From Halovivax limisalsi (GTDB lineage Archaea; Halobacteriota; Halobacteria; Halobacteriales; Natrialbaceae): 64,000 nt of DNA. Below are positions 8,887-49,452 of this stretch, piece by piece. A program made the position numbers and the translations under genes. Location: positions 868,001-932,000 of the forward strand of contig NZ_CP095757.1 of assembly GCF_023093535.1 (NCBI RefSeq), in the 5' to 3' direction. How positions within the stretch are numbered: position 1 is the first letter of the stretch; each line of letters starts with the position of its first letter. Below the pieces are notes generated by a model. The model saw only the letters and a program-made list of their open reading frames with translations, ran no database searches and was not told where the DNA came from.

Positions 8887-10710
8887 ATGGTCTCTGCCGG
8901 CGAGTTAGAGATATTCAGACACACGCTCGAAGGCGCCGTCGAAGAGATGGGGGTCACGCTCCAGCGGACGGCGTACTCGACCAACATCAAGATTCGACGC
9001 GATCACACCTGCGCGCTGTTCGACGCCGACCTGCGTCACGTCGCCCAGCACGACGTCGCGCCGCAACACATCGGGTCGCTCGTCTCGGTGGTCCCGCGAA
9101 ACCTGAAAGGTCGCCTCGAGGACCTCGAACCGGGTGACGGCCTGCTGGTCAACGACCCCTACAAGGGCGCGGTCCACCTGCCCGACGTCATGCTCATCTC
9201 GCCGCTCTTTCACGACGGCGAGCTGATCGGCGTCGCCGCCAACTCGGCCCACCACGTCGACATCGGCGGCGGGACGCCGGGCGGCATTCCCACCGACAGC
9301 ACGGACCTCTACGGCGAGGGGATCATCCTCCCGCTGTCGAAGGCCGTCGAGGACTGGGCGTACGACGAGACGGTGCTCGACCTGATCCGGCGCAACGTCC
9401 GCGGCGCGGAGATGCGCCTGGGCGACTACCGCGCCCAGCTCGGCGCGAACCGCATCGGCGAGCAGCGCTATGGCGACCTCCACGACCGCTACGGCACCGA
9501 CACCGTCGAAACGTACCTCGACGAACTGCTCGACGCGACCGAGAAGCGCGTTCGCGCGGCCATCGCCGACCTGCCCGACGGCACCTACGAGGCGAGCGAT
9601 CACATGGACGGCGACGGCGTCGTCGACGAGCCGGTCCGCCTCCAGCTCGCGATCACGGTCGACGACGACGAGTTGACCGTCGACTTCACCGGCACCGCCG
9701 AGCAGAACGAGGGGCCGCTCAACTGCACGCCCGCGATGATCTTCTCCGGGACGATGAGCGTCATCATGTCGCTGCTGGGCGCCGACCTCCCGAAGAACGA
9801 CGGCTTCTACCGCCCGTTCGAGTTCGTCACGCCCGAGGGGACGATGGTCAACCCGAACCCCCAGGCGCCGGTCGCCTCGGGCTGGGAGATCCCCATGCGC
9901 GCGGGCGAACTCGTCACGAAGGCGATGGCGGATGCCCTCCCCGACGAGACGATCGCCGCGACGAAGGGCATCGTCTGCAACATCGCCTACGGCGGCGACG
10001 ACCCCCGCGACGACGGCGAGTACGTCTACTACGAGACGGTCGCCGGCGGCTACGGCGCGCGCAAGGAGAAAGACGGGATGGAGGCCGTCCAGACGCACTT
10101 CCAGAACACCGCCAACAGCCCGATCGAGGAGCTCGAACGCGAGGTGCCGCTGTACGTCCGCCGGTACGAACTCATCCAGGACTCGGCGGGCGCGGGCCGG
10201 ACCCGCGGCGGCCTCGGCGTGCGCCGGGACATGGAGTTCTACGACCACCGGACCCAGTTCTCGATCCTCTCCGATCGCGCGAAATCGGACCCGTGGGGGC
10301 TCTTCGGGGGCGAGAGCGGTCGACGCGCGCACTACGTGATGGACCCCGACACCGACGACGAGCGGGCCGTGAGCTCGAAGTCGACGACGACGCTCGCCCC
10401 GGGCGGCGTCGCCAGCATCCAGACGCCCGGCGGCGGGGGCTACGGCGACCCGCTCGAGCGCGACCCCGAGGCCGTGCTCGAAGACGTCCGCGACGAGAAG
10501 GTCTCGGCCGAGGCGGCCCGCGAACGCTACGGCGTCGTCGTCAGCGACGGCGAGCTCGACCGGGAGGCGACTCAGGACCGTCGGGAGGAGCTGCGGGCGG
10601 CGCGGCCCGATGGTGGGACGGAGGCGGCGAACGCGCCGGATGGAGGGCGCGACGATAGCGGGACGACCCCGCCGGCCGCCGAGCGCGATGCGGAGGTGAG
10701 CGCCGAATGA
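8887..10710 (+). CDS. hyuB: Hydantoinase B / 5-oxoprolinase beta family subunit
   Basis: The 607-residue protein has the canonical HyuB motif VNDPYKGAVHLPD (residues 88-100) and AHHVDIGG (121-128), which carry likely metal or substrate ligands (Asp90, His97, Asp100, His122/123, Asp125). It ends with the family's GGGGYGDPLERDPEAV and YGVVV-x3-GELDREAT motifs plus a variable acidic tail. HyuB acts with ATP-using HyuA to open lactam or hydantoin rings, such as 5-oxoproline or N-methylhydantoin, and related complexes carboxylate ketones. It is translationally coupled to hyuA (ATGA). The substrate is unknown. This is the most conventional of the six HyuB proteins in the window. Confidence 0.9.
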   Translation: MVSAGELEIFRHTLEGAVEEMGVTLQRTAYSTNIKIRRDHTCALFDADLRHVAQHDVAPQHIGSLVSVVPRNLKGRLEDLEPGDGLLVNDPYKGAVHLPDVMLISPLFHDGELIGVAANSAHHVDIGGGTPGGIPTDSTDLYGEGIILPLSKAVEDWAYDETVLDLIRRNVRGAEMRLGDYRAQLGANRIGEQRYGDLHDRYGTDTVETYLDELLDATEKRVRAAIADLPDGTYEASDHMDGDGVVDEPVRLQLAITVDDDELTVDFTGTAEQNEGPLNCTPAMIFSGTMSVIMSLLGADLPKNDGFYRPFEFVTPEGTMVNPNPQAPVASGWEIPMRAGELVTKAMADALPDETIAATKGIVCNIAYGGDDPRDDGEYVYYETVAGGYGARKEKDGMEAVQTHFQNTANSPIEELEREVPLYVRRYELIQDSAGAGRTRGGLGVRRDMEFYDHRTQFSILSDRAKSDPWGLFGGESGRRAHYVMDPDTDDERAVSSKSTTTLAPGGVASIQTPGGGGYGDPLERDPEAVLEDVRDEKVSAEAARERYGVVVSDGELDREATQDRREELRAARPDGGTEAANAPDGGRDDSGTTPPAAERDAEVSAE

Positions 10711-12734
10711 CCGTCCGCATCGGCGTCGACACCGGCGGGACGTTCACCGACGTGGTCTACTACGACGAGGAGACCGGCCGTGTGTCGGTGACCAAGACGC
10801 CGTCGACGCCGCCGGACTTCGACCGCGGCGTGCTCAACGGGATCGACAAGATCCTCGCCGAGACTGACGCGGACCCCGGGTCGGTCTCCTTCCTCAGCCA
10901 CGGGACGACCGTCGGGACGAACGCGGTTCTCGAGGAGGAGATCCCGCCGCTCGGCCTGATCACCAACGAGGGCCTGCGCGACGTCCTCGAGATCGGCGAC
11001 CAGACGCGCCCGGAGCTGTACAACCTCCAGACGGAGAAGCCGCCGGCGCTCGTTCCGCGGCGACACCGAAAGGAGGTGCCCGGACGCCTCGATGCCGACG
11101 GCGATGAGGTGGATCCGCTCGACGAGACCGCGGTCCGCGAGGTCGCGCGCGAACTCGCCGACGCCGAGGTCGAGTCGGTCGTCGTCTCGATGCTGTTTTC
11201 CTACCTGAACCCTGACCACGAGCGCCGCGTGGCCGAGATCGTCACGGAGGAGACGGATCTTTCCTGTACGCGTTCCTCCGCGGTTCACCCGGAGATCCGC
11301 GAGTACGATCGGACGATCACGACGGTCCTGAACGAGGCGGTCAGGACGACCGTCGAGGCGTACTTCGCGCGCCTCGACGCGGGCATCCTCGAACGGGACA
11401 TCGACGTGCCGCTCAACGTCATGCACTCCGGCGGCGGCATCTTCGGCACGACGGGCGCGACCGAGGCCGCGATCCGGACGGTGCTCTCGGGCCCGGCCGC
11501 GGGCGCGGTCGCCACGCGCGACGTCACCGACGCGGAGGGCTTCCCGAACGCGATCGGGATCGACATGGGCGGGACGAGCGCCGACGTCAGCATCGTCCGG
11601 GACGGCGAGATCGTCCGCTCGACGTCGGGCGAGATCAACGACCTGCCGGTCAACACGCCGATGATCGACATCAACACCGTCGGCTCCGGCGGCGGTTCGA
11701 TCGCCTGGCTGGACGCCGGCGGCGGCCTCCACGTCGGCCCCGAGAGCGCGGGCGCCGACCCCGGCCCGATCTGCTACGGTCGCGGCGGCGAGCGGCCGAC
11801 GCTCACCGACGCGAACCTCCTGCTCGGTCGGGTGAGCCCCGAGAACTTCCTGGGCGGCGAGATGGACCTCGCCGTCGAGAAGACCCGCGACATCTTCGAG
11901 TCCGAGATCGCAGACCCCCTGGGCGAGTCGATCGAGGAGGCCGCGCTGTCGGTCGTCCGCGTCGCCAACGCCAGCCTGGCCCGCGAGATCCGCCGCGTGA
12001 CGGTCGAGCGCGGGCACGACCCGGCCGACTTCGCGCTGGTGGCCTTCGGCGGCGCCGGCCCGATGCAGGCGCCCTCGGTCGCCGCGGAGCTGGACGTCGA
12101 GGCGACGATCGTCCCGCGTAACCCGGGCGTCTTCTCCGCGCGCGGGCTATTGCTCGCCGACGTTCGCATGGACGAGTCCCGCTCGGCCCGCGCCGCCGGC
12201 GACGACCCGGCCGCCATCGCCGACGGGTTCGACGAACTCGCCGCGACGCTCCTCGATCGCTTCGCCGAGCAGTCGATCGACCCGGAGACGGTCACGGTCG
12301 AGCGGAGCGTCGACCTGCGCTACGCGGGTCAGTCCTACGAACTCACGGTGGACGCGCCCGACGGCGAGATCGACGCCGCGGCGCTCGAGACCGTTCGTGA
12401 GCGCTTCCACGCGGCCCACGAGCGTCGCTACGGCTACGCGAACCCCGACGAGCCGGTGGAGTTCGTCACCCTCCGGGTCAACGGCGTCGTCCCGACCCCG
12501 CGCTTCGAGGACGCGCTGACCGCGGCCGACGAGGCGGCCGACCGCGAGAGTCGCGCGGTCTACTTCGCGGACTCGGGCTACCGCGAGGCCGGCGTCTACC
12601 GGCGCGAGGCCCTGGCGCCCGGCGCGTCCGTCGACGGGCCGGCGATCCTCGAAGGCGCCGGCTCCACGACGGTGGTCCCGCCGGAGACCACCGCGAGCGT
12701 CACCGAGAACGGTAACGTCGTCATCAGACGGTAG
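10707..12734 (+). CDS. hyuA: Hydantoinase A / 5-oxoprolinase alpha family subunit
   Basis: The 675-residue product begins RIGVDTGGTFTD, the first phosphate loop of the ASKHA-like HyuA N-terminal domain. It then shows SHGTTVGTNAVLE (residues 68-80) and, in the middle, IGIDMGGTSADVSIV and GSGGGSIAWLD. These are the ATP-binding elements of HyuA, which phosphorylates the amide oxygen before ring opening. Its start overlaps the hyuB stop by four bases, so a 1:1 complex is expected. At 675 residues the length is normal for the family. It is one of three HyuA proteins here. Confidence 0.9.
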   Translation: MTVRIGVDTGGTFTDVVYYDEETGRVSVTKTPSTPPDFDRGVLNGIDKILAETDADPGSVSFLSHGTTVGTNAVLEEEIPPLGLITNEGLRDVLEIGDQTRPELYNLQTEKPPALVPRRHRKEVPGRLDADGDEVDPLDETAVREVARELADAEVESVVVSMLFSYLNPDHERRVAEIVTEETDLSCTRSSAVHPEIREYDRTITTVLNEAVRTTVEAYFARLDAGILERDIDVPLNVMHSGGGIFGTTGATEAAIRTVLSGPAAGAVATRDVTDAEGFPNAIGIDMGGTSADVSIVRDGEIVRSTSGEINDLPVNTPMIDINTVGSGGGSIAWLDAGGGLHVGPESAGADPGPICYGRGGERPTLTDANLLLGRVSPENFLGGEMDLAVEKTRDIFESEIADPLGESIEEAALSVVRVANASLAREIRRVTVERGHDPADFALVAFGGAGPMQAPSVAAELDVEATIVPRNPGVFSARGLLLADVRMDESRSARAAGDDPAAIADGFDELAATLLDRFAEQSIDPETVTVERSVDLRYAGQSYELTVDAPDGEIDAAALETVRERFHAAHERRYGYANPDEPVEFVTLRVNGVVPTPRFEDALTAADEAADRESRAVYFADSGYREAGVYRREALAPGASVDGPAILEGAGSTTVVPPETTASVTENGNVVIRR

Positions 12735-12824
12735 GGCCGACCGGGGACCCTGGTCGAGAGCCAGCCGATCTACTTCGTCGCCGATTCGGTGGGCCCGCCA
12801 CCGGCGACGCGTTCCCGACGAACG

Positions 12825-12830
12825 TTTATG
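12825..12830 (+). promoter_or_regulatory. TATA-like box of HpcH/HpaI aldolase gene
   Basis: AACGTTTATGTC lies 24-29 bases before the ATG at 12854. This indicates a separate promoter despite the short distance to hyuA. Confidence 0.5.
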
Positions 12831-12853
12831 TCGCGTCCGTCCGAGAACCCGCC

Positions 12854-13651: not shown

Positions 13652-13760
13652 CCCGGACCCGCTTAATATTGACAGGGTAACGCCCGTATCTGGGAAGTGT
13701 ACGGTCGCAACCATTCCGTCCGCGATTTTTACCGCGATCAGTCCGTAACGAAAACGGAAA

Positions 13761-13770
13761 CTTATATGAT
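13761..13770 (+). promoter_or_regulatory. Promoter of livKHMGF operon
   Basis: GGAAACTTATATGATAATG contains a strong TATA box (13762-13767). Transcription would start near 13790, ahead of both candidate livK start codons. Confidence 0.6.
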
Positions 13771-13825
13771 AATGTGCTAGGAACAGTGGGCCAACCGTGG
13801 GATGGTACCGCACGGCCGTGGGATT

Positions 13826-15094: not shown

Positions 15095-15109
15095 GCAGTA
15101 CTCCTATCG

Positions 15110-16006: not shown

Positions 16007-16007
16007 G

Positions 16008-16976: not shown

Positions 16977-17056
16977 CCGAGCGTCACGCACGACGCGGAC
17001 GGATTGAGAACCGCGACCGTCGATCTCGCCGCCGCGGGGAGGTGACCGGCGCATGA
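16973..17056 (+). CDS. Possible 27-residue basic small protein between livM and livG
   Basis: This short frame starts at an ATG overlapping the livM stop and ends in a TGA overlapping the livG ATG. Both junctions have purine-rich Shine-Dalgarno-like sequences (GGAGGA before it and GGGGAGGTGA inside it ahead of livG). About 11 of its 27 residues are arginine, unlike haloarchaeal proteins, so it may be only a translated spacer that couples livM to livG. There is no homology evidence. Confidence 0.25.
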   Translation: MTERHARRGRIENRDRRSRRRGEVTGA

Positions 17057-18021: not shown

Positions 18022-18023
18022 CG

Positions 18024-18728: not shown

Positions 18729-18747
18729 GAGCGCGGTCCGTTCGCGT

Positions 18748-18772
18748 CCGTTTTCCGTTCTGCCGGTTTTCA
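18748..18772 (+). terminator. T-rich terminator after livF
   Basis: Two TTTT tracts separated by a GC-rich segment lie between the livF stop and the convergent gene end at 18770. Confidence 0.4.
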
Positions 18773-19999: not shown

Positions 20000-20059
20000 A
20001 CGAACACGTTACCTGCGGCCGTCGTATGTGTTTGGGTCCGGAGACGGCGAGGACGGGCC

Positions 20060-26261: not shown

Positions 26262-28403
26262 ATGTCCGCCGACATAGCGACACGGATCGGTGTGGACGTC
26301 GGGGGCACCTTCACCGACACGGTGTTCCTCGACGAATCGACGGGCGAGTTGACCATCGCCAAGTCGTCCTCGACCCCCGCCGACTATTCGCGGGGAATCC
26401 TCGAGTCGATTCGAACGGTGACCGACGACCTCTCGCAGGTGGATTTCTTCAGTCACGGCACCACGGTCGGCGTCAACGCCCTGCTGGAGAACGACCTCTG
26501 CGAGATGGGCCTGCTCACCACGGCCGGTTTCCGGGACGTCCTCGAGATCGGCCGGAGCAACCGGACCAACATGTACGACCCGTTCTACGAGAAGCCGGAC
26601 CCGCTGATCCCGCGGCGGGCGCGCCTCGAGGTCGACGAGCGCGTCGACACGAACGGCGACGTGGTCGAACCGCTCGATCCCGACTCCGTTCGCGAGGCGC
26701 TCGACGGGCTCGTCGATCGGGGCGTCGACGGCGTCTGCGTCGCGCTGCTCAACGCCTACGCGAATCCCGACCACGAACGGCGGATCGGCGAGTTGATCGA
26801 GGCGGAGTATCCGGACCTGTTCTACACGCTCTCGTCGTCCCTCTCGCGCGAGTACCGGGAGTACGAGCGCACCGCGACGGCCGCGATCAACCTCGGGATC
26901 ACGCCGGTGATGGAGGACTACCTCGACACGCTCGAACGCGAGTTCGCGGGGATGGGGTTCGACGACGAACTCTACATCATGCAGTCAAACGGCGGGATCA
27001 TGTCGACAGAGAGCGCGAAGGGTAGCCCCGTCAACACGCTGAAGTCGAGTCTCTCCGGCGGCGTCGCGGGCCTCCTCACGCTCGGCGAGACGATCGGGCG
27101 CGAGAACCTCATCGGCGCCGACATGGGCGGGACGAGCTTCGACATCGAGCTCGTCGTCGACGGCGAGGCCCGGACGCGCTCGTCCTACCAGGTCGAGACG
27201 CCGACCTCGGGCGACGACGGCTATCCCGTCATGACGCCGACGCTCGACGTCCACTCGATCGGGGCCGGCGGCGGCTCGATCGCCTGGGTCGACGACGGCG
27301 GCGGGCTCCACGTCGGGCCGCGCAGCGCCGGCGCGGATCCGGGCCCGATCTGCTACGGCCGCGGCGGCACCGAACCCACCGTTACGGACGCCAACGTCCT
27401 GCTCGGCCGGCTGAACCCGGACCACCTGCTCGGCGGCGACCTCTCGCTCGACCTCGCGCCGACGCGGGGTGCGTTCGACTCGCTCGGCGACAATCTCGAC
27501 ATGGAGCCGCTCGAGGCGGCCGCGGGCATCCTCGAGATCGCGAACACGAACATGGCGCGCTCGATCCGGACGAACGTCCTGCGCAAGGGCATCGACCCGC
27601 GCGAGTTCACGATGGTCGCCTTCGGCGGCGCGGGCCCGACCCACGCGGTCGAGATCGCCGGCCAGATCGACATTCCGGAGGTCCTCGTCCCGAACTCGCC
27701 GGGTAACTTCTCGGCGTGGGGCATCCTCACGACCGACGTCAAACACGACTACGTGCGGACCTACGTCGACCCCGTGGCGGCCGTCGAGCCGTCGACGCTG
27801 GCCGACGCCTTCGCCACCCTGGAAGCCGAGGGGGGCGACCAGCTGGCCGACGAGGGGATCGACCCGTCGGACCGGCGCTTCGTCCGCGCGGTCGACGTCA
27901 GGTACGTCGGCCAGGAGCACACGCTGACCGTGCCGGTGCCGACGGGCGAGCTGTCGGGCGCGGATCTCGACGCGATCACCGAGCGCTTCGACGAGGCCCA
28001 CCAGGAGCAGTACATGCACTCGGCGCCCGAGGAGCCCAAGGAGTTCGTCTCGATCCGCCTGACCGCGTTCGGCTCGATGACGTCGCCCGAACTGCCGTCC
28101 GTCGAGGCGGGCGAGGAGACGCCGCCGGAGGCGGCCTTCGTCGACGAGCGCGACGTCCACTTCGCGGAGACGGGCTTCGTCGAGACCGACATCGTCGACC
28201 GCGACTCGCTGCTGGCGGGCAACCGCCTGGCGGGCCCGGCGATCGTCGAGGAGGACACTTCGACGACGGTCGTCCCGCCGTGGAGTTCGCTCACCGTCGA
28301 CGAGTACGGCCACCTGCGACTGGCGACGGGAGCCGACGCGGACGGATCGGGGGCCGTCGCCATCGAGGAGATCGCCGGCGAGACCGGAGGTGACGGCCGA
28401 TGA
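26262..28403 (+). CDS. hyuA: Hydantoinase A / 5-oxoprolinase alpha family subunit
   Basis: The 713-residue protein starts MSADIATRIGVDVGGTFTD (phosphate loop at residues 8-19), then SHGTTVGVNALLE near 65, IGADMGGTSFDIELV, and GAGGGSIAWVDDGGG. It is the ATP-dependent subunit of a hydantoin- or lactam-opening complex. The ATG at 26262 is chosen because a TATA box lies one promoter length upstream; the frame extends 690 bases further upstream, but with non-haloarchaeal composition. Gene order here is hyuA then hyuB (ATGA overlap), the reverse of the pair at 8887. Confidence 0.9.
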   Translation: MSADIATRIGVDVGGTFTDTVFLDESTGELTIAKSSSTPADYSRGILESIRTVTDDLSQVDFFSHGTTVGVNALLENDLCEMGLLTTAGFRDVLEIGRSNRTNMYDPFYEKPDPLIPRRARLEVDERVDTNGDVVEPLDPDSVREALDGLVDRGVDGVCVALLNAYANPDHERRIGELIEAEYPDLFYTLSSSLSREYREYERTATAAINLGITPVMEDYLDTLEREFAGMGFDDELYIMQSNGGIMSTESAKGSPVNTLKSSLSGGVAGLLTLGETIGRENLIGADMGGTSFDIELVVDGEARTRSSYQVETPTSGDDGYPVMTPTLDVHSIGAGGGSIAWVDDGGGLHVGPRSAGADPGPICYGRGGTEPTVTDANVLLGRLNPDHLLGGDLSLDLAPTRGAFDSLGDNLDMEPLEAAAGILEIANTNMARSIRTNVLRKGIDPREFTMVAFGGAGPTHAVEIAGQIDIPEVLVPNSPGNFSAWGILTTDVKHDYVRTYVDPVAAVEPSTLADAFATLEAEGGDQLADEGIDPSDRRFVRAVDVRYVGQEHTLTVPVPTGELSGADLDAITERFDEAHQEQYMHSAPEEPKEFVSIRLTAFGSMTSPELPSVEAGEETPPEAAFVDERDVHFAETGFVETDIVDRDSLLAGNRLAGPAIVEEDTSTTVVPPWSSLTVDEYGHLRLATGADADGSGAVAIEEIAGETGGDGR

Positions 28404-30752: not shown

Positions 30753-32543
30753 TTACGACCGCAGCGTCTCGGTCGCCTCGCGGTCGAGTTCGCCCCCCTC
30801 GGTGACGACCACGCCGTAGATCTCCCTGGCGGCTTCGCGCGAGACGTACTCGTCGCGAACGTCGGCCAGGACGGCTTCGGGGTCGCGCTCCATCGGGTCG
30901 CCGTAGCCGCCTCCGCCGCCGGTGCGCACCGAGAGCGTCTCGCCGGGTTCGAAGTCGCCGCGCATCATCCCCGCGTAGCGCTCGCCGTCCTCGGCGTCGA
31001 AGAGGTAGTCGTTGTCGACCAGGATCGAGATGCGATCCCCGTCGGGGTCGTCGGCGTCGACGACGATGGTGTTTCGCGCGCCGGGACCGCCGCCGTCGTG
31101 GCCCCAGCCGGGCGATCGCGAGCGCTGGAGGATCGACAGCGCGCCCGCGGGGTCGGTGAACTCGTAGTCGCGCCGGGTGCCCAGCCCGCCGCGATAGGTC
31201 CCCTCGCCGCCCGAGTCCTGTCGGAGTTCCAGCCGAGTGAACCGGATCGGGGCCTTGTTCTCGAAGACCTCGACGGGGACGTTGCGGACCATCGTCTCGG
31301 AGATGTGCATCAGCGCGCTCTCGCCGTCCTGGCCCCGCGTCGCGCCCCAGCCGACGGCGTCGTTGTTCGCCTCGACGTACATCTCGCCGGTGTCGGGGTG
31401 CTCGCCGTAGATCTGGATGCCGACCGGTTCGCCGCCCGAGGCCGCGGGCACCTCGTCGGGCATTGCTTTCGCGAGCGCCTTGTAGATGACGTCGATGCCC
31501 GTGATGGCCGTCCAGACGGTGAAGGTCGGCGCGGGGTACTGGGCGTTGAAGACGTTGCCCTCGGGCGCGACGATCTCGAGGGGCCGGTACTGGCCCTCGT
31601 TGGAGTCCTCCTCGGGCGTGGTGACCGTCTTGAAACAGAGCTTGCAGATGGTCTCGGTCATCCCGCGCGGGATGTTCAGCGGCTCTTCGACTTCGTCGTC
31701 CGACCCGGAGAGGTCGATCGTGAACTCGTCGCCGTCGATGGTCACCTCGGCCTCGACGTGGATGTGGTCGCCCGGCTCGCGCCCGACGCCGTCGGCGTAG
31801 TCGGAGGCGGTCCAGGTGCCGTCGGGCAACTCGCTGACGGCCGTGCGGGCGGTCTCCTCGCCGTGGTCGATCACGACGTCGATCGCGTGCTCGACCGCGT
31901 CCTCGCCGTAGCGCTCGTAGAGTTCGCGCAGGCGCTTGTTGCCGGTCTCCAGCGAGGAGACCTGGGCGTGGAGGTCGCCGACGACCTTGTCGGGGATGCG
32001 CGAGTTGAAGCGGACCAGGTCGATGATCTCCCGGTTGGGCTCGCCGTCCTCGTAGACCTTCGTCCCGGGGAAGACCAGCCCCTCCTGGTGCATGTCCGTC
32101 GAGTCGAGGACGTAGCCGGGGTCCTTCGCCCCGAGGTCGAGCCAGTGGGCGCGACAGGTGGTGTAGCCGACGATCTCGTCGTCGTAGAACACCGGCGCCA
32201 TCAGGCACATGTCGAGGACGTGCGTCCCGCTCCAGTAGGGGTAGTTGAGCATCAGGACGTCGCCGGGATTCAGGTTCTCCTCGCCGACGTACTCGACGGT
32301 CTTCTCGATCGCGCCGTCGTTCGCGCCCAGGAAGAGTGCCAGTCCCGGCGAGTCCGCGATGAGATTGAGATCGCGGTCGTACATCGAGATGCCGAAGTCG
32401 AGGATCTCGTAGACGACCGTGTTGTACGCCGTGCGGATCAGGGTCCGCTGCATCTCGGCCGCCGCCGAGGTGAGGTAGTTCCTGATCACTTCGATCGTCG
32501 CTGCGTCGAGGTCGGGGGGAGCGGACGAATTATCAGAGTTCAT
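30753..32543 (-). CDS. hyuB: Orphan hydantoinase B-family protein, NYPYW clade
   Basis: The 596-residue protein is full-length HyuB by its N-terminal EVIRNYLTSAAAEMQRTLIRTAYNT region (EMQRTLIRTAYNT, residues 30-42) and the C-terminal GGGGYGDPMERDPEAV and YGVVV. The canonical NDPY is replaced by LNYPYWSGTHVLD (99-111), and the second motif is AHWLDLGAKDPGYVLDSTD. It has no adjacent hyuA; the nearest co-directional gene is dppF, about 290 bases upstream. It may act with a HyuA encoded elsewhere, for example at 47413. It is strongly similar to the three HyuB proteins at 39134, 42350 and 45602. Confidence 0.88.
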   Translation of the reverse strand: MNSDNSSAPPDLDAATIEVIRNYLTSAAAEMQRTLIRTAYNTVVYEILDFGISMYDRDLNLIADSPGLALFLGANDGAIEKTVEYVGEENLNPGDVLMLNYPYWSGTHVLDMCLMAPVFYDDEIVGYTTCRAHWLDLGAKDPGYVLDSTDMHQEGLVFPGTKVYEDGEPNREIIDLVRFNSRIPDKVVGDLHAQVSSLETGNKRLRELYERYGEDAVEHAIDVVIDHGEETARTAVSELPDGTWTASDYADGVGREPGDHIHVEAEVTIDGDEFTIDLSGSDDEVEEPLNIPRGMTETICKLCFKTVTTPEEDSNEGQYRPLEIVAPEGNVFNAQYPAPTFTVWTAITGIDVIYKALAKAMPDEVPAASGGEPVGIQIYGEHPDTGEMYVEANNDAVGWGATRGQDGESALMHISETMVRNVPVEVFENKAPIRFTRLELRQDSGGEGTYRGGLGTRRDYEFTDPAGALSILQRSRSPGWGHDGGGPGARNTIVVDADDPDGDRISILVDNDYLFDAEDGERYAGMMRGDFEPGETLSVRTGGGGGYGDPMERDPEAVLADVRDEYVSREAAREIYGVVVTEGGELDREATETLRS

Positions 32544-32835: not shown

Positions 32836-33967
32836 TCAGTCGTCGGCGCCGATGTCGGAGCGCATGCGTTCGCGCTCGGCCGCGTCGGCGTACTGGTCGA
32901 CCTCGTCGGCCTTCTTGCCGGGGTAGAGCAGGCACCGGACCTGCTGGCCGTCGTCCTGTTCGACGAGGCAGGGGTCGACGTTCGGACAGGCGTCGAACGA
33001 CTTGTGACAGCGCGGGTGGAACGAACAGCCCGACGGCGGGTCGATCGGGTCCGGCGGTTCGCCTTCCGTCGTCACCGAGGTGGGTTTCATCGCGAGCTCC
33101 TCGCTCTCGACGACCGGGATCGCCGAGAGCAGCTGTTCGGTGTAGGGGTTCAGCGGGTTCTCGAAGAGCTGCCGACTGGTGCCGACCTCCATGAACTTCC
33201 CGAGGTACATCACGGCGATGCGGTCGGCGATGTTCTTCACCAGACTCAGGTCGTGACTGATGATCACGTAGGTCAGGTCGAGGCGCTCCTGGAGCTCCTC
33301 CAGCAGGGAGATGACCTTCGCCTGGACGGAGACGTCGAGCGCGCTCGTGGGCTCGTCGAGGACGACGAGCTTCGGGTTGAGGATGAGCGCGCGGGCGATG
33401 GCGACGCGCTGTTTCTGTCCGCCGGAGAGCTCGGTGGGATAGCGGTGGATGAACTCCGCCGGCAGGTCGACCAGTTCCAGCATCTCGACGACGCGCTGGC
33501 GGCGTTCCTCGCGGCTGCCGACGCCGTGAATCTTCAGCGGGTCGCCGACGATGTGCTTGACGCGTCGACGCGGGTTGAGCGAGGAGGTGGGGTCCTGGTA
33601 GACGACCTGGAGGTTGCGCCGGATCGACCGCAGCTGGCGGGTGGACATCGACGAGATGTCCGTCCCGTCGAAGACGATCTCGCCCTCCGTGGGCTCCTGC
33701 AGGCGGCTGATGACCTTCCCCAGCGTGGTCTTGCCGCAGCCGCTCTCGCCGACGACGGCGAGGGTCTCGCCGGGTTCGACGTCGAAACTGACGCCGTCGA
33801 CGGCCCGAACCGGCTCGCTCGACCGGCTGAACAGCCCGCCGCCGGTCTGGAAGTGTTTCGTCACGTCCGAGACGGAGAGCAGCGGTTCGGCCTGGGCGTC
33901 AGTCGACGTGGCGCTGGCATCCGTCGCCGCGGTCGATCCGGCCGCGTCGGCCGGCGCTCCGTCGGCG

Positions 33968-33975
<8 letters not shown>
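32836..33975 (-). CDS. dppF: Dipeptide/oligopeptide ABC transporter ATP-binding protein (DppF-like)
   Basis: The protein is about 379 residues, with Walker A GESGCGKTT, signature LSGGQKQR, Walker B LVVLDEPTSALDV, and the C-terminal oligopeptide-transporter domain GCSFHPRCHKSFDACP with its cysteine set. A 30-residue Ala/Ser/Thr-rich leader precedes the first beta-strand. The ATG at 33975 overlaps the dppD stop by 8 bases; an ATG three codons earlier is also possible. It energises peptide or nickel-type import with DppD. It is the last gene of the dppBCDF operon. Confidence 0.9.
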
Positions 33976-35125
<1,150 letters not shown>

Positions 35126-36058
35126 CTACTCCACCTCCACGTCGAACATGTCCCGAAGACCGTCCCCGAGGAAGTTAAACCCGAGGACCGCGAGGAAGAT
35201 CGCCAGTCCCGGGAAGGTCGAGTACCACCAGTAGGTCGGCAGGAAGTTTCGCCCCTCGGCCGTCATCGTCCCCCACTCCGGGACGGGCGGCTGGGCGCCC
35301 AGTCCGAGGAAACCGAGCCCGGCGCCGACGAGGATGGCGTAGCCCATGTCCAGGCTGAACTTGACGCTGATCGGCGCCAGGATGTTGGGGAGGATCTCCC
35401 GGAAGAGGATGCGCGGGATCGACGCTCCCACGCCCCTCGCCGCCTCGATATAGGTTTCTTCCTTGACGGATAACACCTCCCCGTAGGTCAGCCTGGCGTA
35501 CCACGGCCACCAGACCGCCGCGATCGCGATCATGGCGTTCGTCAACCCGGGTTCTAACGCGACGATGACGGTCAGTGCCAGTACGAGCGGCGGTACGGCG
35601 AGGAAGATGTCCGAGACGCGCATGGCCACGGAGCCGAACGGCCCGCCGATATACCCCGCCGCCAGCCCGACCGGGACGCCGATGCCGATGGCGACTCCGG
35701 TGACGAACAGCCCGAGCTGGAGCGAGAGCCGGGTCCCGAAGATGATGCGCGAGAGGATGTCGCGACCCGCCTGGTCGGTCCCGAGCAGGTACTCCGAGGA
35801 CGGCCCCTCCAGCTTGTGTTCGAAGTTCGTTCCCGACCCCTCGCCGTGGCCGGCGTGGCCCGGGTACGGGGCGAGATAGGGTGCGAAGATCGCGACGAAG
35901 ACGAACGCGAAGATGATCCCGAGGCCGAGCAGTGACATCGGATTCTGTCGGAACCGGTAGGCGATCCGGTCGAGGTCCTCGCGGATGCGCCCCGCTCTGG
36001 CGCGCCAGCCGGTGTCGACGTCGGGACTCGCGCCGGCGTCGGGCGTCTCGCCGCTCAT
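35126..36058 (-). CDS. dppC: Dipeptide/oligopeptide ABC transporter permease (DppC-like)
   Basis: The 310-residue permease has an N-terminal cytoplasmic segment, a first TM around residues 42-62 (LGLGIIFAFVFVAIFAPYL), HPLGTDxxGRD-like LLGTDQAGRDILSR, and the EAA loop EAARGVGASIPRILFREILP. About six TMs are seen. It forms the translocation pore with DppB. Its start overlaps the dppB stop by ATGA. Confidence 0.92.
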   Translation of the reverse strand: MSGETPDAGASPDVDTGWRARAGRIREDLDRIAYRFRQNPMSLLGLGIIFAFVFVAIFAPYLAPYPGHAGHGEGSGTNFEHKLEGPSSEYLLGTDQAGRDILSRIIFGTRLSLQLGLFVTGVAIGIGVPVGLAAGYIGGPFGSVAMRVSDIFLAVPPLVLALTVIVALEPGLTNAMIAIAAVWWPWYARLTYGEVLSVKEETYIEAARGVGASIPRILFREILPNILAPISVKFSLDMGYAILVGAGLGFLGLGAQPPVPEWGTMTAEGRNFLPTYWWYSTFPGLAIFLAVLGFNFLGDGLRDMFDVEVE

Positions 36059-37074
36059 GCGTCACCACCCGTCACGCGGACCCGCGGGTCCAGGTAGCCG
36101 TAGAGCACGTCGACGACGAAGTTGACGAGGAGGTAGCCGATCCCGATCACGAGCGTCACGCCCACGACCGCGTTGATGTCGTTCTGGAGGATGGCGGTGA
36201 CGCCGTAGCGGGCCATCCCCGGCCAGCCGAAGACGATCTCGACCAGGAACGCCCCGCCGATGAGGAAGCCGAAATCGAGGCCGGCGATCGTCAGCGTCGA
36301 GGTGGACGCTCGCTTGAGCACGTACTTGTAGACGAGGAGCTTCTCCGGAATGCTGTGGGTCCGGAGCCCCTCGACGTACTCCTTGTTGTACTCCTCGATG
36401 AAACTCGAACGAGTCATACGCGTGATGTCTGCCATGGGTGCGAGTGAGAGCGTCAACGCGGGCAAGAAGATGTGCATGGCCGCGCTCTGGAAGGCGGCGA
36501 AATTCAGCGTCAGCAGCGAATCCAGCAACAACAGTCCGGTGACCTCGTTGTAGGCGACGTCGCCCATACGCCCGGTCGCCGGGAACCAGTTCAGCTGGAA
36601 GGCGAAGAAGAGCTGGAGCAAGATCGCCGCCCAGAACTGGGGCAACGAGACCCCGATGAACGAGATCCCGCGGCTGGCGTTGTCCTGAAACTTGTCTTTG
36701 TTCCGAGCCGAAACGATGCCCAGGGGGATGCCGACGACGATCGCGATCAGCATCGCCACGATGACCAGCTCGAGCGTCGCCGGCAGGAACTCCGCCAGGT
36801 CGGTGGCGACGTCGCGGTTCGTGGTCAGGGCGACGCCCATCTCGCCGCGGAACAGGCCGCCGATGTACTCGCCGTACTGGACCCAGATCGGTTCGTCGAG
36901 GCCCATCTCCCGGCGAAGATTCTGGACGGCCTCCTCCGACGCCCGCGGACCGAGGGCCTGTCGCGCAGGCTGGCCCGGGATCACCCGCGCCAGCACGAAG
37001 ATCAGGATGGACAGTCCGAAGAAGACGGGAACGATCGAAAGGAGCCGTTTCAACAGGTACGTTCTGTACGACAT
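36055..37074 (-). CDS. dppB: Dipeptide/oligopeptide ABC transporter permease (DppB-like)
   Basis: The 339-residue permease begins MSYRTYLLKRLLSIVPVFFG, the usual DppB N-terminus (KRLL-x2-VPVFFG then TM1). It has GEYIGGLFRGEMG in the first external region, and ends with the EAA-type loop and DPRVR. The ATG at 37074 is chosen by this N-terminus; a longer open frame upstream crosses the promoter. It is the first gene of dppBCDF and is divergent from dppA. Confidence 0.9.
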   Translation of the reverse strand: MSYRTYLLKRLLSIVPVFFGLSILIFVLARVIPGQPARQALGPRASEEAVQNLRREMGLDEPIWVQYGEYIGGLFRGEMGVALTTNRDVATDLAEFLPATLELVIVAMLIAIVVGIPLGIVSARNKDKFQDNASRGISFIGVSLPQFWAAILLQLFFAFQLNWFPATGRMGDVAYNEVTGLLLLDSLLTLNFAAFQSAAMHIFLPALTLSLAPMADITRMTRSSFIEEYNKEYVEGLRTHSIPEKLLVYKYVLKRASTSTLTIAGLDFGFLIGGAFLVEIVFGWPGMARYGVTAILQNDINAVVGVTLVIGIGYLLVNFVVDVLYGYLDPRVRVTGGDA

Positions 37075-37170
37075 TATCTCTCGAACATCTGTCGGTGGCG
37101 GCCCAGTGGGTGGTCGATATACGGTTCCCTCCCGTTGCGTGCGAGCATGTGAATGGCAAACCCAGTTCAC

Positions 37171-37180
37171 GATATTAAGC
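37171..37180 (-). promoter_or_regulatory. Promoter of dppBCDF
   Basis: On the minus strand GCTTAATATC is a TATA-like box about 100 bases before the dppB ATG, implying a 5' untranslated region of around 70 bases. Confidence 0.45.
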
Positions 37181-37322
37181 GTTTTCGTTCCGGTGACTGG
37201 TGTCTCTCGCGGCGGCCCCGTTCCGTCGAGAAGCGACACGCAGAAACCGCGTGGCGCGTCGTGTTTCCTTCCAAGACGGAGCGGAGCTGCACTCACCGCG
37301 ACATGTCGTGAAATCGTGGGGT

Positions 37323-37330
37323 ATTCTTAT
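37323..37330 (+). promoter_or_regulatory. TATA-like box of dppA
   Basis: ATTCTTAT lies 26-33 bases before the ATG at 37356, and this choice of start gives a leaderless transcript. Confidence 0.4.
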
Positions 37331-37355
37331 GTCGCGTGCGGAAAGTTGGCATACT

Positions 37356-45601: not shown

Positions 45602-47410
45602 TTACTCCCGCCGCTCGGCGCGCAACTCCTCGGTCGCCTCGCGATCCAGTTCGCCGTCGGCGCTCACGACGACGCCGTAGTCCTCGCGGGCGCCCTCGGG
45701 CGAGACGTAGCCGTCGATGACGTCCTCGCGAACGGCCTCGGGATCCCGGTCGAGCGGGTGCCCGTAGCCCCCTCCGCCGCCGGAGCGGTTCGAGATGGTC
45801 TCGCCGGGTTCGAACTGGCCGCGCATCATGCCGACGAACTTCAGGTTCTCGCCGGCCTCGTCGTAGAGTTCCTCGTTGTCGACCAGCAGCTGGACGCGGT
45901 CCTCCCAGCCGTCCTCGAGGTCGAGGACGACGACGTTCTTCGCGCCGGGCTCGCCGCCCTCGAGGCCCCAGCCCTCGGTTTTCGTCTTCTGGATGATCGA
46001 GAGCCCGCCGCAGGGGGCGGTGAAACGGTAGTCGCGCTTGATGCCGAGCCCGCCGCGGTAGGCGCCGGGCCCGCCCGAGTCCTGGCGCAGCGAGAGCCCG
46101 TCGAACTGGATCGGGGCCTTGTTCTCGAAGACCTCGATCGGGATGTTGCGGACCATCGACTCGGCGATGTGCATCAGCGCGTTCGGCCCGTCGCGGACGT
46201 CGTTGCCGCCCCAGCCGACGCCCTCGTTGAGCGCCTCGACGAACGCGCGGCCCGTCTCCGGGTCCTCGCCGTAGAGCATGATGTCACAGAGGTCGCCGCC
46301 GGAGCTCGCCGAGACCTTCTCGGGGACGGCCTTCGCGAGCGCCTCGTAGATGACGTCGACCGCGAGGAACGCCGTCCACAGGGTGAACGTCGGGGCGGGG
46401 TACTCGGGGTTGAACATGTTGCCCGGCGGGACCTCGAGCGAGAGCGGCTCGTACTGGCCCTCGTTCGAGTCCTCGTCGGGCGTGGTGATGCTCTTGAACG
46501 CCAGCTTCGCGAGCGTCTGGCTCATGCCGAGCGGGACGTTCAGCGGGGCGTCGATCTGGTCGGACGACCCCGAGAGGTCGACCGTGAACTCGTCGCCCTC
46601 GATCGTCACCTCGGCCTCGATCCGCAGCAGGTCGTCCGGATCCGACGTGATGCCGTCGCCGTAGCCGACTGCGCTCCAGCTACCGTCGGGCAGGTCCTCG
46701 ACGGCGTCCCTGGCCGTTCGCTCGCCGTGGTCGATGACCGACTCGATGGCGGTCTCGACGGTGTCGGTGCCGTACTTCTCGTGGAGGCTGCGCAGCCGGT
46801 CGGCGCCGGTCTGCAGCGCGGCGATCTGGGCGTTGAGGTCGCCCAGCGTCTTGTCGGGAATCCGGGAGTTGAAGCGAATGAGGTCCATGATCTCCTCGTC
46901 CGGTTCGCCCTCCTTGTAGACCTTCGTCCCGGGGAAGATGACGCCCTCCTGGTGCATGTCCGTCGAGTCGAGGACGTAGCCCTCGTCCTTCGCGCCCAGG
47001 TCGAGCCAGTGGGCCCGACTCGCGGTGTAGCCGATGAGTTCCTCGTCGAGGAAGACCGGCTTGATCACCAGCACGTCGAGCGTGTGGGTCGAACTCCAGT
47101 AGGGGTAGTTACAGAGGATGATGTCGCCGGGATTCAGGTTCTCCTCGCCCAGGTGCTCGACGGTGCGGCGCAGGCCGTAGTCGTTCGCGCCGAGGAACAT
47201 CGAGAGGCCGGGCGAGTCCGCGACCAGCCGGCGATCGGCGTCGTACATCGAGATCCCGAAGTCGAGGATCTCGTAGATGATCGTGTTGTACGCCGTCCGG
47301 ATGAGCGTGCGCTGCATCTCGGTCGCGGCCGAGGTGAGGTAGTTGCGGATCACTTCGACCGTCGCGCCGTCGATCTCGTCCGCGGGGGTCGGTGCGCTCG
47401 TAGTACTCAT
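45602..47410 (-). CDS. hyuB: Hydantoinase B-family protein, NYPYW clade, paired with hyuA
   Basis: The 602-residue protein has EMQRTLIRTAYNT, the altered motif CNYPYWSSTHTLD, AHWLDLGAKDEGYVLDSTD, and the end GGGGYGHPLDRDPEAV with His in place of Asp. It terminates LRAERRE without the repeat-derived tail. It starts 2 bases after the hyuA at 47413, so this is the only member of its clade with its own hyuA. That makes it the likely reference subunit from which the nearby orphan copies were duplicated. Confidence 0.9.
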   Translation of the reverse strand: MSTTSAPTPADEIDGATVEVIRNYLTSAATEMQRTLIRTAYNTIIYEILDFGISMYDADRRLVADSPGLSMFLGANDYGLRRTVEHLGEENLNPGDIILCNYPYWSSTHTLDVLVIKPVFLDEELIGYTASRAHWLDLGAKDEGYVLDSTDMHQEGVIFPGTKVYKEGEPDEEIMDLIRFNSRIPDKTLGDLNAQIAALQTGADRLRSLHEKYGTDTVETAIESVIDHGERTARDAVEDLPDGSWSAVGYGDGITSDPDDLLRIEAEVTIEGDEFTVDLSGSSDQIDAPLNVPLGMSQTLAKLAFKSITTPDEDSNEGQYEPLSLEVPPGNMFNPEYPAPTFTLWTAFLAVDVIYEALAKAVPEKVSASSGGDLCDIMLYGEDPETGRAFVEALNEGVGWGGNDVRDGPNALMHIAESMVRNIPIEVFENKAPIQFDGLSLRQDSGGPGAYRGGLGIKRDYRFTAPCGGLSIIQKTKTEGWGLEGGEPGAKNVVVLDLEDGWEDRVQLLVDNEELYDEAGENLKFVGMMRGQFEPGETISNRSGGGGGYGHPLDRDPEAVREDVIDGYVSPEGAREDYGVVVSADGELDREATEELRAERRE

Positions 47411-47412
47411 GT

Positions 47413-49452
47413 TCAGTCCTCCTGGCTGATGAGGATGTGGCCGTACTCGTCGATCTCGGCGGTCTGGTCGGAGTGGTAGACGATGGTCGTCGTCGGCTCC
47501 TGGACGATCGCGGGGCCGGGCACCTCGTGACCCGGCTGGAGCTGTGCGCGCTCGTAGACGTCGAAGGTCGTCTTCTCGCGCTCGGCGAAGCAGTAGGCTT
47601 CGCGCGTGTCGACCGGCTCGACCGTCGGGTCGTCCGTCGGCTCCTGGGCCTCGATCGATGGCTTGTCGTTCTCGCCGATGGCGCGGACGCGCAGGTGGAC
47701 GACCTCCGGCGGGTCGTCCATCGTGTGACCGTAGCGGGTCTCGTGGCGCGCCTCGAAGCGCTCCCCTAACTCGTCGAGGCTCTCGACGTCGTTCGCGTCG
47801 ACCTCGACGGTGTGCTCCTGGCCGAGGTAGCGCATCTCGACGAAGCGTTCGAGCGTGCGCTCGTCGCCGGTGAAGCCTTCGTCGCCGAGGGTTTGGGCGC
47901 CCTCTTCCTCGAGATCGGCGAACTGCGCGTCGAACGCCTCGTAGTCGAGTTCGTCGAGGACGGTGATCGACGTCTGGGCCATGTCGTAGACGACGTCGGC
48001 CATCAGCATGCCCCAGGCGGAGAAGACCGATGGCGCCTGCGGGATGAGGACCTCGTCGGCGCCGATCTCGCGGGCCAGCAGCGGGACGAACAGCGAGCCG
48101 GCCCCGCCGTAGGAGACCATCGTGAAGTCCCGCGGGTCCAAGCCCTTCTCGACGGTGATCTCGCGGATCGCGCCGACCGTGTTCGCGAGCGTGACGTCGA
48201 AGACGCCGCGGGCCGCCTCGTCGACGGACATCTCGAGCGGGTCGGCCAGCTTCTCCTCGATGCCCTCGAGGGCGCCGGTCTGGTTCAGGTCCATGTCGCC
48301 GCCGAGGAAGGCGGCCGGGTCCATGTAGCCCAGCGCGACGGCGGCGTCGGTCACCGTCGGCTCGGTGCCGCCGCGACCGTAGCAGATCGGGCCCGGGTCC
48401 GCGCCGGCGCTCTTGGGGCCGACCTTGAGGAACTCGCCGTCGTGCCAGGCGATCGAGCCGCCGCCCGCGCCGATCGTCCGGATGTCGTAGACCGGGATCA
48501 TCATCGGCATGTGCCCGAGCGTCGAGTCGTACTCGACGGCCGGCGCGCCGTTCTCGATGACGCAGGCGTCGAGGCTGGTCCCGCCCATGTCGACCGCGAT
48601 CAGGTTGTCGCGGTCGGTGACGTCGCCGACGTGCGAGGCCCCGATGAGCCCGCCCGCCGGGCCCGAGAGGATCGTGTGGACCGGCGCGGTCGTCGCGTTC
48701 TCGGCGGTCAGCGTCCCGCCGCCCGAGCGCGTGATGAAGAACGAGCCGTCGAAGCCGTCCTCGCGCAGCGCGCCGTCGAGGCGGTCGACGTAGTTCTCGA
48801 AGATCGGCTTGATGTAGGCGTCGAGGACGGCCGTGCTCGTGCGCTCGTACTCGCGGTACTCGCCGGTGATGTCGCTCGACAGCGAGAGGCTGACGTCGGG
48901 GACCTCCTCGCGGATGATCTCGCCGGCCTGGCGCTCGTGCTCGCCGTTGCGATAGGAGTGGAGGAAGCAGATCGCGATCGACTCGACGTCGTGGTCGTCG
49001 ACCAGTTCGCGGGCGGCCTCGCGGACCGCGTCCTCGTCGAGGGGCTCGCTCACGTCACCGTTGGCGTCGATCCGGCCCGGAACGCCGATGCGGCGGCGAC
49101 GGGGCACGATCTGTTCGGGCTTCTTGTACCGGATGTCGTACATCGACTCGCGCTCGACGTTGGTGCGACCGATCTCGAAGACGTCGCGAAAGCCCTCGTT
49201 GGTGACGATGCCCGTTCGGGCGCCCTCTCGTTCGAGGAATGCGTTGATACCGAGGGTCGTCCCGTGGACGAACGCCTCCGTCTCGGCGAGATCGGCGCCG
49301 ACCTTGTCCTTGGCGTTGAGAACGCCCTTCTCCGGCTGGTCGGGTGTCGTCGAGGCCTTCTCGACGTTGATCTCGCCCGTCTCCCGATCGAACATGATCG
49401 AGTCGACGAACGTTCCACCGATGTCTACGGCTAGGCGGTCTTTCGACTCCAT
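47413..49452 (-). CDS. hyuA: Hydantoinase A / 5-oxoprolinase alpha family subunit
   Basis: The 679-residue protein starts MESKDRLAVDIGGTFVDS (phosphate loop at residues 9-15), then HGTTLGINAFLE near 62 and LIAVDMGGTSLDACVI and GAGGGSIAWHDGE in the middle. These are the ATP-site elements of HyuA. The ATG at 49452 directly precedes the first strand and is preferred over an in-frame start 66 bases upstream. It is first in the minus-strand series hyuA-hyuB-M24-hyuB-cupin-hyuB, and may serve several HyuB partners. Confidence 0.9.
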   Translation of the reverse strand: MESKDRLAVDIGGTFVDSIMFDRETGEINVEKASTTPDQPEKGVLNAKDKVGADLAETEAFVHGTTLGINAFLEREGARTGIVTNEGFRDVFEIGRTNVERESMYDIRYKKPEQIVPRRRRIGVPGRIDANGDVSEPLDEDAVREAARELVDDHDVESIAICFLHSYRNGEHERQAGEIIREEVPDVSLSLSSDITGEYREYERTSTAVLDAYIKPIFENYVDRLDGALREDGFDGSFFITRSGGGTLTAENATTAPVHTILSGPAGGLIGASHVGDVTDRDNLIAVDMGGTSLDACVIENGAPAVEYDSTLGHMPMMIPVYDIRTIGAGGGSIAWHDGEFLKVGPKSAGADPGPICYGRGGTEPTVTDAAVALGYMDPAAFLGGDMDLNQTGALEGIEEKLADPLEMSVDEAARGVFDVTLANTVGAIREITVEKGLDPRDFTMVSYGGAGSLFVPLLAREIGADEVLIPQAPSVFSAWGMLMADVVYDMAQTSITVLDELDYEAFDAQFADLEEEGAQTLGDEGFTGDERTLERFVEMRYLGQEHTVEVDANDVESLDELGERFEARHETRYGHTMDDPPEVVHLRVRAIGENDKPSIEAQEPTDDPTVEPVDTREAYCFAEREKTTFDVYERAQLQPGHEVPGPAIVQEPTTTIVYHSDQTAEIDEYGHILISQED

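What the first reader, a model, noticed from the sequence alone, without database searches (positions are those of the whole stretch)
8887..49452. Six hyuB genes but only three hyuA genes, with a four-member hyuB clade carrying an altered motif
Seen: full-length HyuB proteins are encoded at 8887, 28400, 30753, 39134, 42350 and 45602, while HyuA is at 10707, 26262 and 47413. The first two HyuB proteins keep the family motif NDPY-x4-H. The four minus-strand ones all read NYPYW-x3-H-x2-D and share AHWLDLGAKDxGYVLDSTD, so Asp is replaced by Tyr next to probable metal-site residues. Only one of these four has its own hyuA. Inference: one HyuA may serve several interchangeable HyuB subunits that set substrate range, or the clade catalyses a different reaction.
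Basis: partly seen in the sequence, partly recalled or inferred. Interest (0 to 1): 0.75.

Follow-up and report, generated by a model that had tools for sequence, protein, structure and literature searches.

The report
One HyuA serving four HyuB subunits
A salt-loving archaeon carries a peptide-importer gene cluster in which one ATP-using enzyme subunit is accompanied by four different partner subunits, a layout that also occurs in bacteria and looks like one engine shared by several interchangeable tools.

Summary
The window has six full HyuB and three HyuA genes; the whole genome has seven and four. The fourth HyuA sits beside its own HyuB, so four minus-strand HyuB proteins (B3-B6) share one HyuA (A3). 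They belong to a well-supported clade (62 sequences, haloarchaea and bacteria) in which an Asp found in all 58 other HyuB rows examined (caprolactamase Asp92) is Tyr, Val or Phe. The published metal ligands are intact in 62 of 62, so the change is near, not in, the metal site. New here: the partner HyuA forms a matching clade with its own altered ATP loop (DIGGTFVD in 34 of 37); an Asn-Asp pair is invariant in the clade; a small cupin gene belongs to the haloarchaeal cluster; and the one-A, several-B layout recurs in other haloarchaeal families and, by separate duplications, in bacteria. B3-B6 are under purifying selection. Their differences concentrate in the published substrate pocket under the stricter of two criteria tested, while the B-B contact region stays alike. 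Best reading: one ATP-dependent activating subunit shared by several ring-opening subunits of different substrate range. Sharing is inferred; substrates are unknown.

The parts
47413..49452 (-). A3: HyuA (PF01968), the only HyuA left as partner of the NY-type HyuB proteins; gamma-phosphate loop DIGGTFVD
45602..47410 (-). B6: NY-type HyuB directly downstream of A3
44282..45391 (-). M24 metallopeptidase with creatinase/prolidase N-domain (Xaa-Pro dipeptidase-like)
   Evidence: also in 7 of 12 NY-HyuB loci and in L063
42350..44185 (-). B5: NY-type HyuB
41112..41441 (-). 109-aa single-domain cupin, linked to the cluster in other haloarchaea; not mentioned in the finding
39134..41002 (-). B4: NY-type HyuB
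37200..39026 (+). SBP_bac_5 peptide/nickel-type substrate-binding protein of the importer (divergent from its permease genes; start codon uncertain)
36055..37296 (-). OppB-type permease
35126..36058 (-). OppC-type permease
33968..35125 (-). OppD-type ATPase
32836..33984 (-). OppF-type ATPase
30753..32543 (-). B3: NY-type HyuB, placed after oppF (same in G046)
26262..28403 (+). A2: HyuA next to B2 (longest ORF starts 25572)
28400..30241 (+). B2: HyuB with NDPY motif
8887..10710 (+). B1: HyuB with NDPY motif
10707..12734 (+). A1: HyuA next to B1; followed by an HpcH-family gene and a Liv-type importer

Best explanation
The 30.7-49.5 kb block encodes a variant of the ATP-dependent cyclic-amide hydrolases (HyuA/HyuB, CapAB, 5-oxoprolinase, N-methylhydantoinase). 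An Opp-type importer brings in peptide-like compounds. The single HyuA (A3) activates the ring carbonyl with ATP. The activated intermediate passes to whichever of four HyuB subunits is docked, and there the metal site opens the ring. The four HyuB proteins keep the same assembly surfaces and metal site but have different pockets, so one ATP-using subunit serves several substrates. The M24 peptidase probably cleaves the opened product. Shown here: gene content, clade membership, co-inheritance of A3-type and NY-HyuB, intact metal ligands, purifying selection, pocket-focused divergence under the stricter criterion, recurrence of the layout. Inferred: that A3 binds all four, that the reaction is ring opening, and what the substrates are.
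For: (1) Genome-wide 7 HyuB and 4 HyuA, with three neighbour pairs and A3 left for B3-B6. (2) In 146 genomes of the order, a hand tally of the tables gives a HyuB excess of 2 or more in 4 (G000, G046, G087, G030), each with at least 3 NYPYW copies. (3) The NY-HyuB clade has 62 rows (SH-aLRT 99); the A3-type clade has 37 rows (99), 36 of them within 3 kb of an NY-HyuB, the 37th having a HyuB cut by the contig end. (4) 13 of 36 NY clusters hold 2-4 NY-HyuB with one A3-type HyuA, bacterial MAGs included (Acidimicrobiia, an alphaproteobacterium, and MAGs without a class name). (5) dN/dS 0.17-0.24 for B3-B6 (B4-B6 against two genomes, B3 against one). (6) Metal ligands 62 of 62. (7) 5 of 14 published pocket positions carry a residue conserved within each orthologue group but of at least 3 kinds between groups, against 13 of 539 elsewhere, p=3e-5. 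(8) The B-B contact region is more alike among paralogues of one genome than among orthologues at equal overall identity (0.86 vs 0.72; 0.90 vs 0.83). (9) The B6 model matches caprolactamase subunit B, Z 38.3, rmsd 2.1 over 556 residues. (10) Cluster neighbours: peptide importer and M24 here; Asp/Glu/hydantoin racemase or proline racemase in relatives' clusters L063, L044, L046.
Against: No binding or activity data. With the looser criterion (at least 2 residue kinds) the haloarchaeal pocket enrichment is not significant (5 of 14 vs 99 of 539, p=0.15), and the mean group-specificity of the pocket is not raised (p=0.61). In the bacterial triplets the looser criterion gives p=0.018 and the stricter 0 of 14. 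Pairwise pocket identity is below that of orthologues in one identity band (0.62 vs 0.76) but not in the other (0.67 vs 0.68). The first helix, part of the published A contact, is not more alike among paralogues than orthologues. In bacteria the B-B region shows no lack of group-specific positions (6 of 45, p=0.81). The pairs compared are few and not independent, and p-values are uncorrected. 23 of 36 clusters show only one NY-HyuB (some contigs end soon after it). The NDST-type A-B-B pair shows no pocket enrichment (p=0.19).
Confidence: 0.58

Rival explanations
1. Mixed complex: different HyuB subunits sit together in one fixed assembly (for instance a B-B' core with A3), so the copies are parts of one enzyme and not alternatives.
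For: The published architecture is (AB)2 with HyuB forming the central dimer. In haloarchaea the B-B contact region is more alike among paralogues of one genome (0.86-0.90) than among orthologues at equal divergence (0.72-0.83), and its mean group-specificity is low (p=2e-6). The B genes are inherited together in G046 and, for B4-B6, in G087.
Against: All HyuB copies keep a full metal site. 23 of 36 clusters show one NY-HyuB, and copy number varies from 1 to 4. The strict count of group-specific positions in the B-B region (0 of 45 vs 18 of 508) is not significant (p=0.39), and bacteria show no depletion there.
Confidence: 0.2
2. The NY clade catalyses another reaction of the superfamily, such as ATP-dependent carboxylation.
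For: Acetone and acetophenone carboxylases share the fold. The clade has lost a widely kept Asp and gained an invariant Asn-Asp pair, and its HyuA has an altered ATP loop. A small extra protein (cupin) is linked in haloarchaea.
Against: By sequence both subunits are closest to N-methylhydantoinase and caprolactamase, with the carboxylases scoring lower; by fold caprolactamase is first (Z 38.3) but N-methylhydantoinase and acetophenone carboxylase are tied (33.2, 33.0). Scores are far below NCBIfam's acetophenone carboxylase cut-offs. The cupin has no Cys and is no zinc-finger gamma subunit. Peptidase, racemase and peptide-importer neighbours fit amides.
Confidence: 0.12
3. Redundant or dosage copies: duplicates of one function kept by chance or for expression.
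For: Clustered layout; similar neighbours.
Against: Copies are 61-72% identical, each with orthologues in other families, under purifying selection, with group-specific pocket residues conserved between genomes.
Confidence: 0.07

Closest known systems
ATP-dependent caprolactamase CapAB (Pseudomonas jessenii, PDB 6YRA, PMC8453981: abstract and passages seen)
   Same: Fold (Z 38.3 over 556 residues), metal ligands Asp41/His99/Asp102/His124, and Tyr136 proposed there as acid/base (62 of 62 in the NY clade).
   Different: 27% identity; position 92 is Tyr/Val/Phe, not Asp; no vicinal Cys pair in B3-B6; one A per several B; far below the NCBIfam CapA/CapB cut-offs.
N-methylhydantoinase, HyuA-HyuB fusion (PDB 7HK5, 9H03)
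   Same: Best sequence match for both A3 and B6; same fold.
   Different: A and B parts in one 1288-residue chain, hence 1:1; NDPY motif; DVGGTFTD loop.
Acetone carboxylase and acetophenone carboxylase (5SVB/5M45, 5L9W)
   Same: Same HyuB-like fold and equivalent metal site; acetophenone carboxylase shows that subunit number can vary (two HyuA-like subunits).
   Different: They have a small gamma subunit with four zinc-site Cys and, in Apc, an extra A-type rather than extra B-type subunits.
Two-gene hydAB clusters as described in PMC5214803 (passages seen)
   Same: Same subunit families and gene order A then B.
   Different: That paper states that hydantoinase clusters consist of only two genes; here one A goes with two to four B.

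Membership tests
HyuA/HyuB (hydantoinase/oxoprolinase) superfamily | PF02538 and PF01968 matches above curated cut-off | tested here: met
HyuA/HyuB (hydantoinase/oxoprolinase) superfamily | HyuB fold as in solved members | tested here: met
   AF2 model of B6 only, pLDDT 88.2; Z 29-38 to the family rows listed
[quoted passage not shown]
   62 of 62 NY-HyuB rows
HyuA/HyuB (hydantoinase/oxoprolinase) superfamily | DxGGT phosphate-binding motifs in HyuA | tested here: met
   both motifs in 37 of 37 A3-type rows
HyuA/HyuB (hydantoinase/oxoprolinase) superfamily | Thr in the full P1 motif DxGGTxTD given for CapA | tested here: not met
   Val in 34 of 37 A3-type HyuA; Thr in the 3 basal rows. I do not take this one residue as defining the superfamily, so the system is filed as a variant
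Caprolactamase CapAB (NCBIfam NF050156/NF050157) | score above the equivalog cut-off of 1000 bits | tested here: not met
   247-302 bits for the six HyuB, 530-581 for the three HyuA of the window
Acetophenone carboxylase (NCBIfam ApcA/ApcC/ApcD) | score above equivalog cut-offs of 1250-1500 bits | tested here: not met
   79-349 bits
Acetone/acetophenone carboxylase | small gamma subunit with four zinc-binding Cys | tested here: inconclusive
   the small linked gene that was found is a cupin without Cys; no dedicated search for a gamma subunit in the genome was made
Two-gene hydAB cluster | one hydA and one hydB per cluster | tested here: not met
   one A3 with four HyuB
ATP-dependent cyclic amidohydrolase (function) | ATP-dependent ring opening | not testable with these tools
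   no assay possible

The most novel reading that the evidence does not exclude
A modular enzyme in which one ATP-dependent activating subunit is shared by up to four ring-opening subunits, possibly in mixed B-B' cores. A relocated acidic residue (Asp lost at position 92, invariant Asp gained at 68) marks the subfamily, and the same expansion arose separately in haloarchaea and bacteria. One complex would then accept several cyclic amides, perhaps cyclic dipeptides.
Probability: 0.25. Interest if true: 0.75.

Novelty: new variant of a known kind. Interest (0 to 1): 0.52.

Why it matters
The published description of hydantoinase-type clusters is one hydA with one hydB (PMC5214803 passages). A natural system that keeps the ATP-using half constant and varies the ring-opening half would show which residues set substrate range, and would give a direct experiment: swap HyuB on one HyuA. 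It would also warn that pairing every HyuB with a HyuA in annotation is unsafe.

Tried and rejected
Hidden HyuA genes for B3-B5: rejected, only 4 matches in the genome. Damaged or dying copies: rejected, all four open, dN/dS 0.17-0.24 (B3 only against G046). Loss of the metal site by the Asp-to-Tyr change: rejected, the ligands are other residues. The cupin as a carboxylase gamma subunit: rejected, no Cys and a cupin profile; no cupin match was seen in the bacterial loci (BLAST at 1e-8, ORFs of 90 aa or more). Four of the 16 haloarchaeal genomes with the NYPYW DNA pattern (G067, G093, G107, G137) were dropped because no HyuB was found at the pattern. Cyclic dipeptides as substrate: an idea from the neighbours only; a literature search for diketopiperazine + oxoprolinase + hydrolase found 0 papers, and two others gave nothing decisive. 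Of PMC3852281 only the abstract and outline were seen; of PMC5649159 one passage. Searches for multi-HyuB systems showed none by title and start of abstract (15 of 15 listed, 15 of 312 listed); the library holds only open-licence papers, so this is weak evidence of absence. Rows below the family's own were not interpreted. The +1 HyuB excess in seven genomes (G015, G019, G054, G063, G067, G086, G089) was followed only for G015. Loci L087, L091 and L092 (pattern hits) gave no separate HyuB row and were not followed. Rows dropped: proteins with identical cores were merged, and matches under 350 aligned residues were left out, which removed the cut HyuB of L081. The trees are quick ML trees without bootstrap.
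Full report
WHAT IS THERE. The window lies at 868001-932000 of a single 3.89 Mb contig. It holds six HyuB and three HyuA genes where the finding puts them. The genome has seven PF02538 and four PF01968 matches, all above cut-off. The extra pair lies near 360 kb (L060). B1-A1, A2-B2 and that remote pair are neighbours, so A3 (47413-49452) is the only HyuA left for B3-B6. The organism is taken to be a haloarchaeon from its acidic, GC-rich proteins and from the named nearest relatives of B6, Halorussus and Halorubrum.

THE CLUSTER. Read on the minus strand the order is A3, B6, M24 peptidase, B5, cupin, B4; then the SBP gene on the plus strand; then OppB, C, D, F and B3 on the minus strand. The 109-aa cupin (PF07883, E 5.7e-12) was not in the finding. 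It is present in 10 of the 12 loci with NY-HyuB among the 20 fetched; it was not seen in the bacterial loci. G046, from another family, has the same gene set at 74-89% protein identity, with the B3-opp-SBP block inverted. Other haloarchaeal clusters add an Asp/Glu/hydantoin racemase between B6 and M24 (L063; a same-size gene in L051), a proline racemase (L044, L046) or an ornithine-cyclodeaminase-family gene (L047).

CLADE. In a tree of 120 HyuB (quick ML, SH-aLRT) the rows without Asp at position 92 form one clade of 62 rows (support 99): 29 haloarchaeal (95), 30 bacterial (100) and 3 basal rows from genomes of the class of L064, an Acidimicrobiia MAG. B3, B4, B5 and B6 each have orthologues: B3 in G046; B4 in G046, G087 and, more distantly, G030 and G146; B5 in G046, G087, G030 and G015; B6 in G046, G087 and G030. 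Some inner forks are open. The bacterial multi-HyuB clusters duplicated inside the bacterial branch, so the expansion arose at least twice. A further A-B-B layout with the motif NDST exists in five Acidimicrobiia loci (L082-L085, L090). In a tree of 90 HyuA, A3-type proteins form one clade of 37 (support 99); 36 lie within 3 kb of an NY-HyuB, and the 37th (L081) has a HyuB cut by the contig end.

HOW COMMON. Among 146 genomes of the order, 136 have a HyuB and 141 a HyuA match; 16 carry the NYPYW DNA pattern, and in 12 of these it lies in a HyuB. By hand tally the HyuB excess is 2 or more in four genomes: G000 7/4, G046 5/2, G087 8/6, G030 5/3; it is 1 in seven more, among them G015 (76% complete, 4/3). 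One of the four NY-HyuB of G087 has its own A3-type HyuA elsewhere (L046). Over the NY clusters examined (36, with L062 and L100 of one genome merged; chosen partly by similarity to B6, so not a random sample; some contigs end just after the last HyuB seen, for example L068, L077 and L093) 13 hold two to four NY-HyuB, and none has a second A3-type HyuA. In 18 genomes, those of 18 of the 20 loci, HyuB matches exceed HyuA in 15 and equal them in 3 or more than that only where printed: 9/9, 9/9, 3/3 and 3/3 are the equal ones, so 14 exceed and 4 are equal. In the class of L064, 19 of 247 genomes carry the pattern.

THE ALTERED MOTIF. Published caprolactamase metal ligands are Asp41, His99, Asp102 and His124; alanine mutants are inactive (PMC8453981, abstract and passages; the abstract prints D101A for the third, the text Asp102). 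All four are kept in 62 of 62 NY-HyuB. Position 92 is Asp in 58 of 58 other HyuB rows and in caprolactamase, but Tyr 55, Val 6 or Phe 1 in the clade. It is not in the paper's list of ligands or pocket residues. The clade has Asn67-Asp68 in 62 of 62; in the other 58 rows Asn67 occurs once and Asp68 in at most four. It always has Tyr136, the acid/base proposed in that paper. That Asp68 replaces Asp92 is a guess. The partner HyuA reads DIGGTFVD in 34 of 37, where CapA's published motif is DxGGTxTD; the 3 basal rows read DVGGTFTD. Of 53 other HyuA rows, the N-terminal loop was seen in 22, all reading D[IVT]GGTFTD; in the other 31 the script found only the second phosphate motif, most of them being cut by the locus end.

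FUNCTIONAL DIVERGENCE. dN/dS is 0.17-0.24 for B3-B6. At 5 of 14 mapped pocket positions (62, 336, 339, 365, 411) the four orthologue groups have at least three residue kinds, each conserved within its group (one exception allowed), against 13 of 539 positions elsewhere (Fisher p=3e-5). With at least two kinds it is 5 of 14 against 99 of 539 (p=0.15). Without B3, p=0.0025 and 0.011. In the bacterial triplets: 0 of 14 at three kinds, 5 of 14 vs 62 of 542 at two kinds (p=0.018). In the NDST pair, 3 of 14 vs 55 of 514 (p=0.19). Mean group-specificity of the pocket is not significantly raised (p=0.61), but that of the B-B region (p=2e-6) and of the first helix (p=0.004) is low and that of residues 233-355 high (p=3e-6). 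At matched overall identity, paralogues of one genome are more alike than orthologues in the B-B region (0.86 vs 0.72; 0.90 vs 0.83) and less alike in 233-355 (0.53 vs 0.62; 0.55 vs 0.64); for the pocket the two identity bands disagree (0.67 vs 0.68; 0.62 vs 0.76), and for the first helix there is no gain (0.81 vs 0.80; 0.86 vs 0.90). The strict B-B count (0 of 45 vs 18 of 508) is not significant (p=0.39). The tests were not corrected for number, and the pairs are not independent.

STRUCTURE. The AlphaFold2 model of B6 (27 sequences, pLDDT 88.2, pTM 0.89) matches caprolactamase B (Z 38.3, rmsd 2.1, 556 residues); N-methylhydantoinase (33.2) and acetophenone carboxylase (33.0) are tied, and acetone carboxylase follows (29-30). 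Foldseek puts N-methylhydantoinase first by E-value.

READING. Family knowledge (PMC5214803 and PMC5543143, passages) gives two linked sites: ATP-driven activation in HyuA, then chemistry at the metal in HyuB. With one A3, four intact NY-HyuB with distinct pockets and a peptide importer, the simplest account is one activating subunit shared by several ring-opening subunits. A mixed HyuB core is the main rival. The substrate is open. The window's left part holds a cis-3-hydroxy-L-proline dehydratase (533.9 bits, cut-off 500) and a proline-racemase-family gene below its cut-offs, so proline-related lactams or peptides are plausible, but this is inference.

Noticed in passing
window 41775-42344: Perfect 70-base tandem repeat, 8.1 copies at 100% matches, in the gap between B5 and the cupin gene.
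   Followed up: partly
window 3091-6669: Hydroxyproline-type catabolic genes: cis-3-hydroxy-L-proline dehydratase (4173-5474, above the NCBIfam cut-off), a proline-racemase-family gene (3091-4404) and an FAD amino-acid-oxidase-family gene (5461-6669).
   Followed up: partly
L082, L083, L084, L085, L090: A second, separate A-B-B layout in Acidimicrobiia, with HyuB motif NDST[IC..]GSHLND-like.
   Followed up: partly
G150 (genome of L066, Immundisolibacterales MAG): 35 HyuB and 34 HyuA matches in one 5.1 Mb genome.
   Followed up: no
L048, L049, L050, L051, L052, L054: Single-NY-HyuB clusters in other haloarchaea carry, near A3-B6 and the cupin, a second A2/B2-like pair (38-45% identity); possibly an extra AB pair in place of extra B copies.
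   Followed up: no
PDB 7HK5/9H03 alignment: N-methylhydantoinase shows Gln where the caprolactamase ligand His124 aligns, although the caprolactamase paper calls that His fully conserved in hydantoinases.
   Followed up: no
G012, G039, G101, G042, G139: Genomes of the order with one HyuA match and no HyuB match; the matches of G012, G039 and G101 are weak (best E 1e-34 to 1e-28), and G042 and G139 are incomplete.
   Followed up: no
L100 7724 and 10903 (same contig as L062): Halorussus salinisoli has two further NY-type HyuB reading NYPYR on the contig that holds its A3-type HyuA and NYPYW HyuB.
   Followed up: partly
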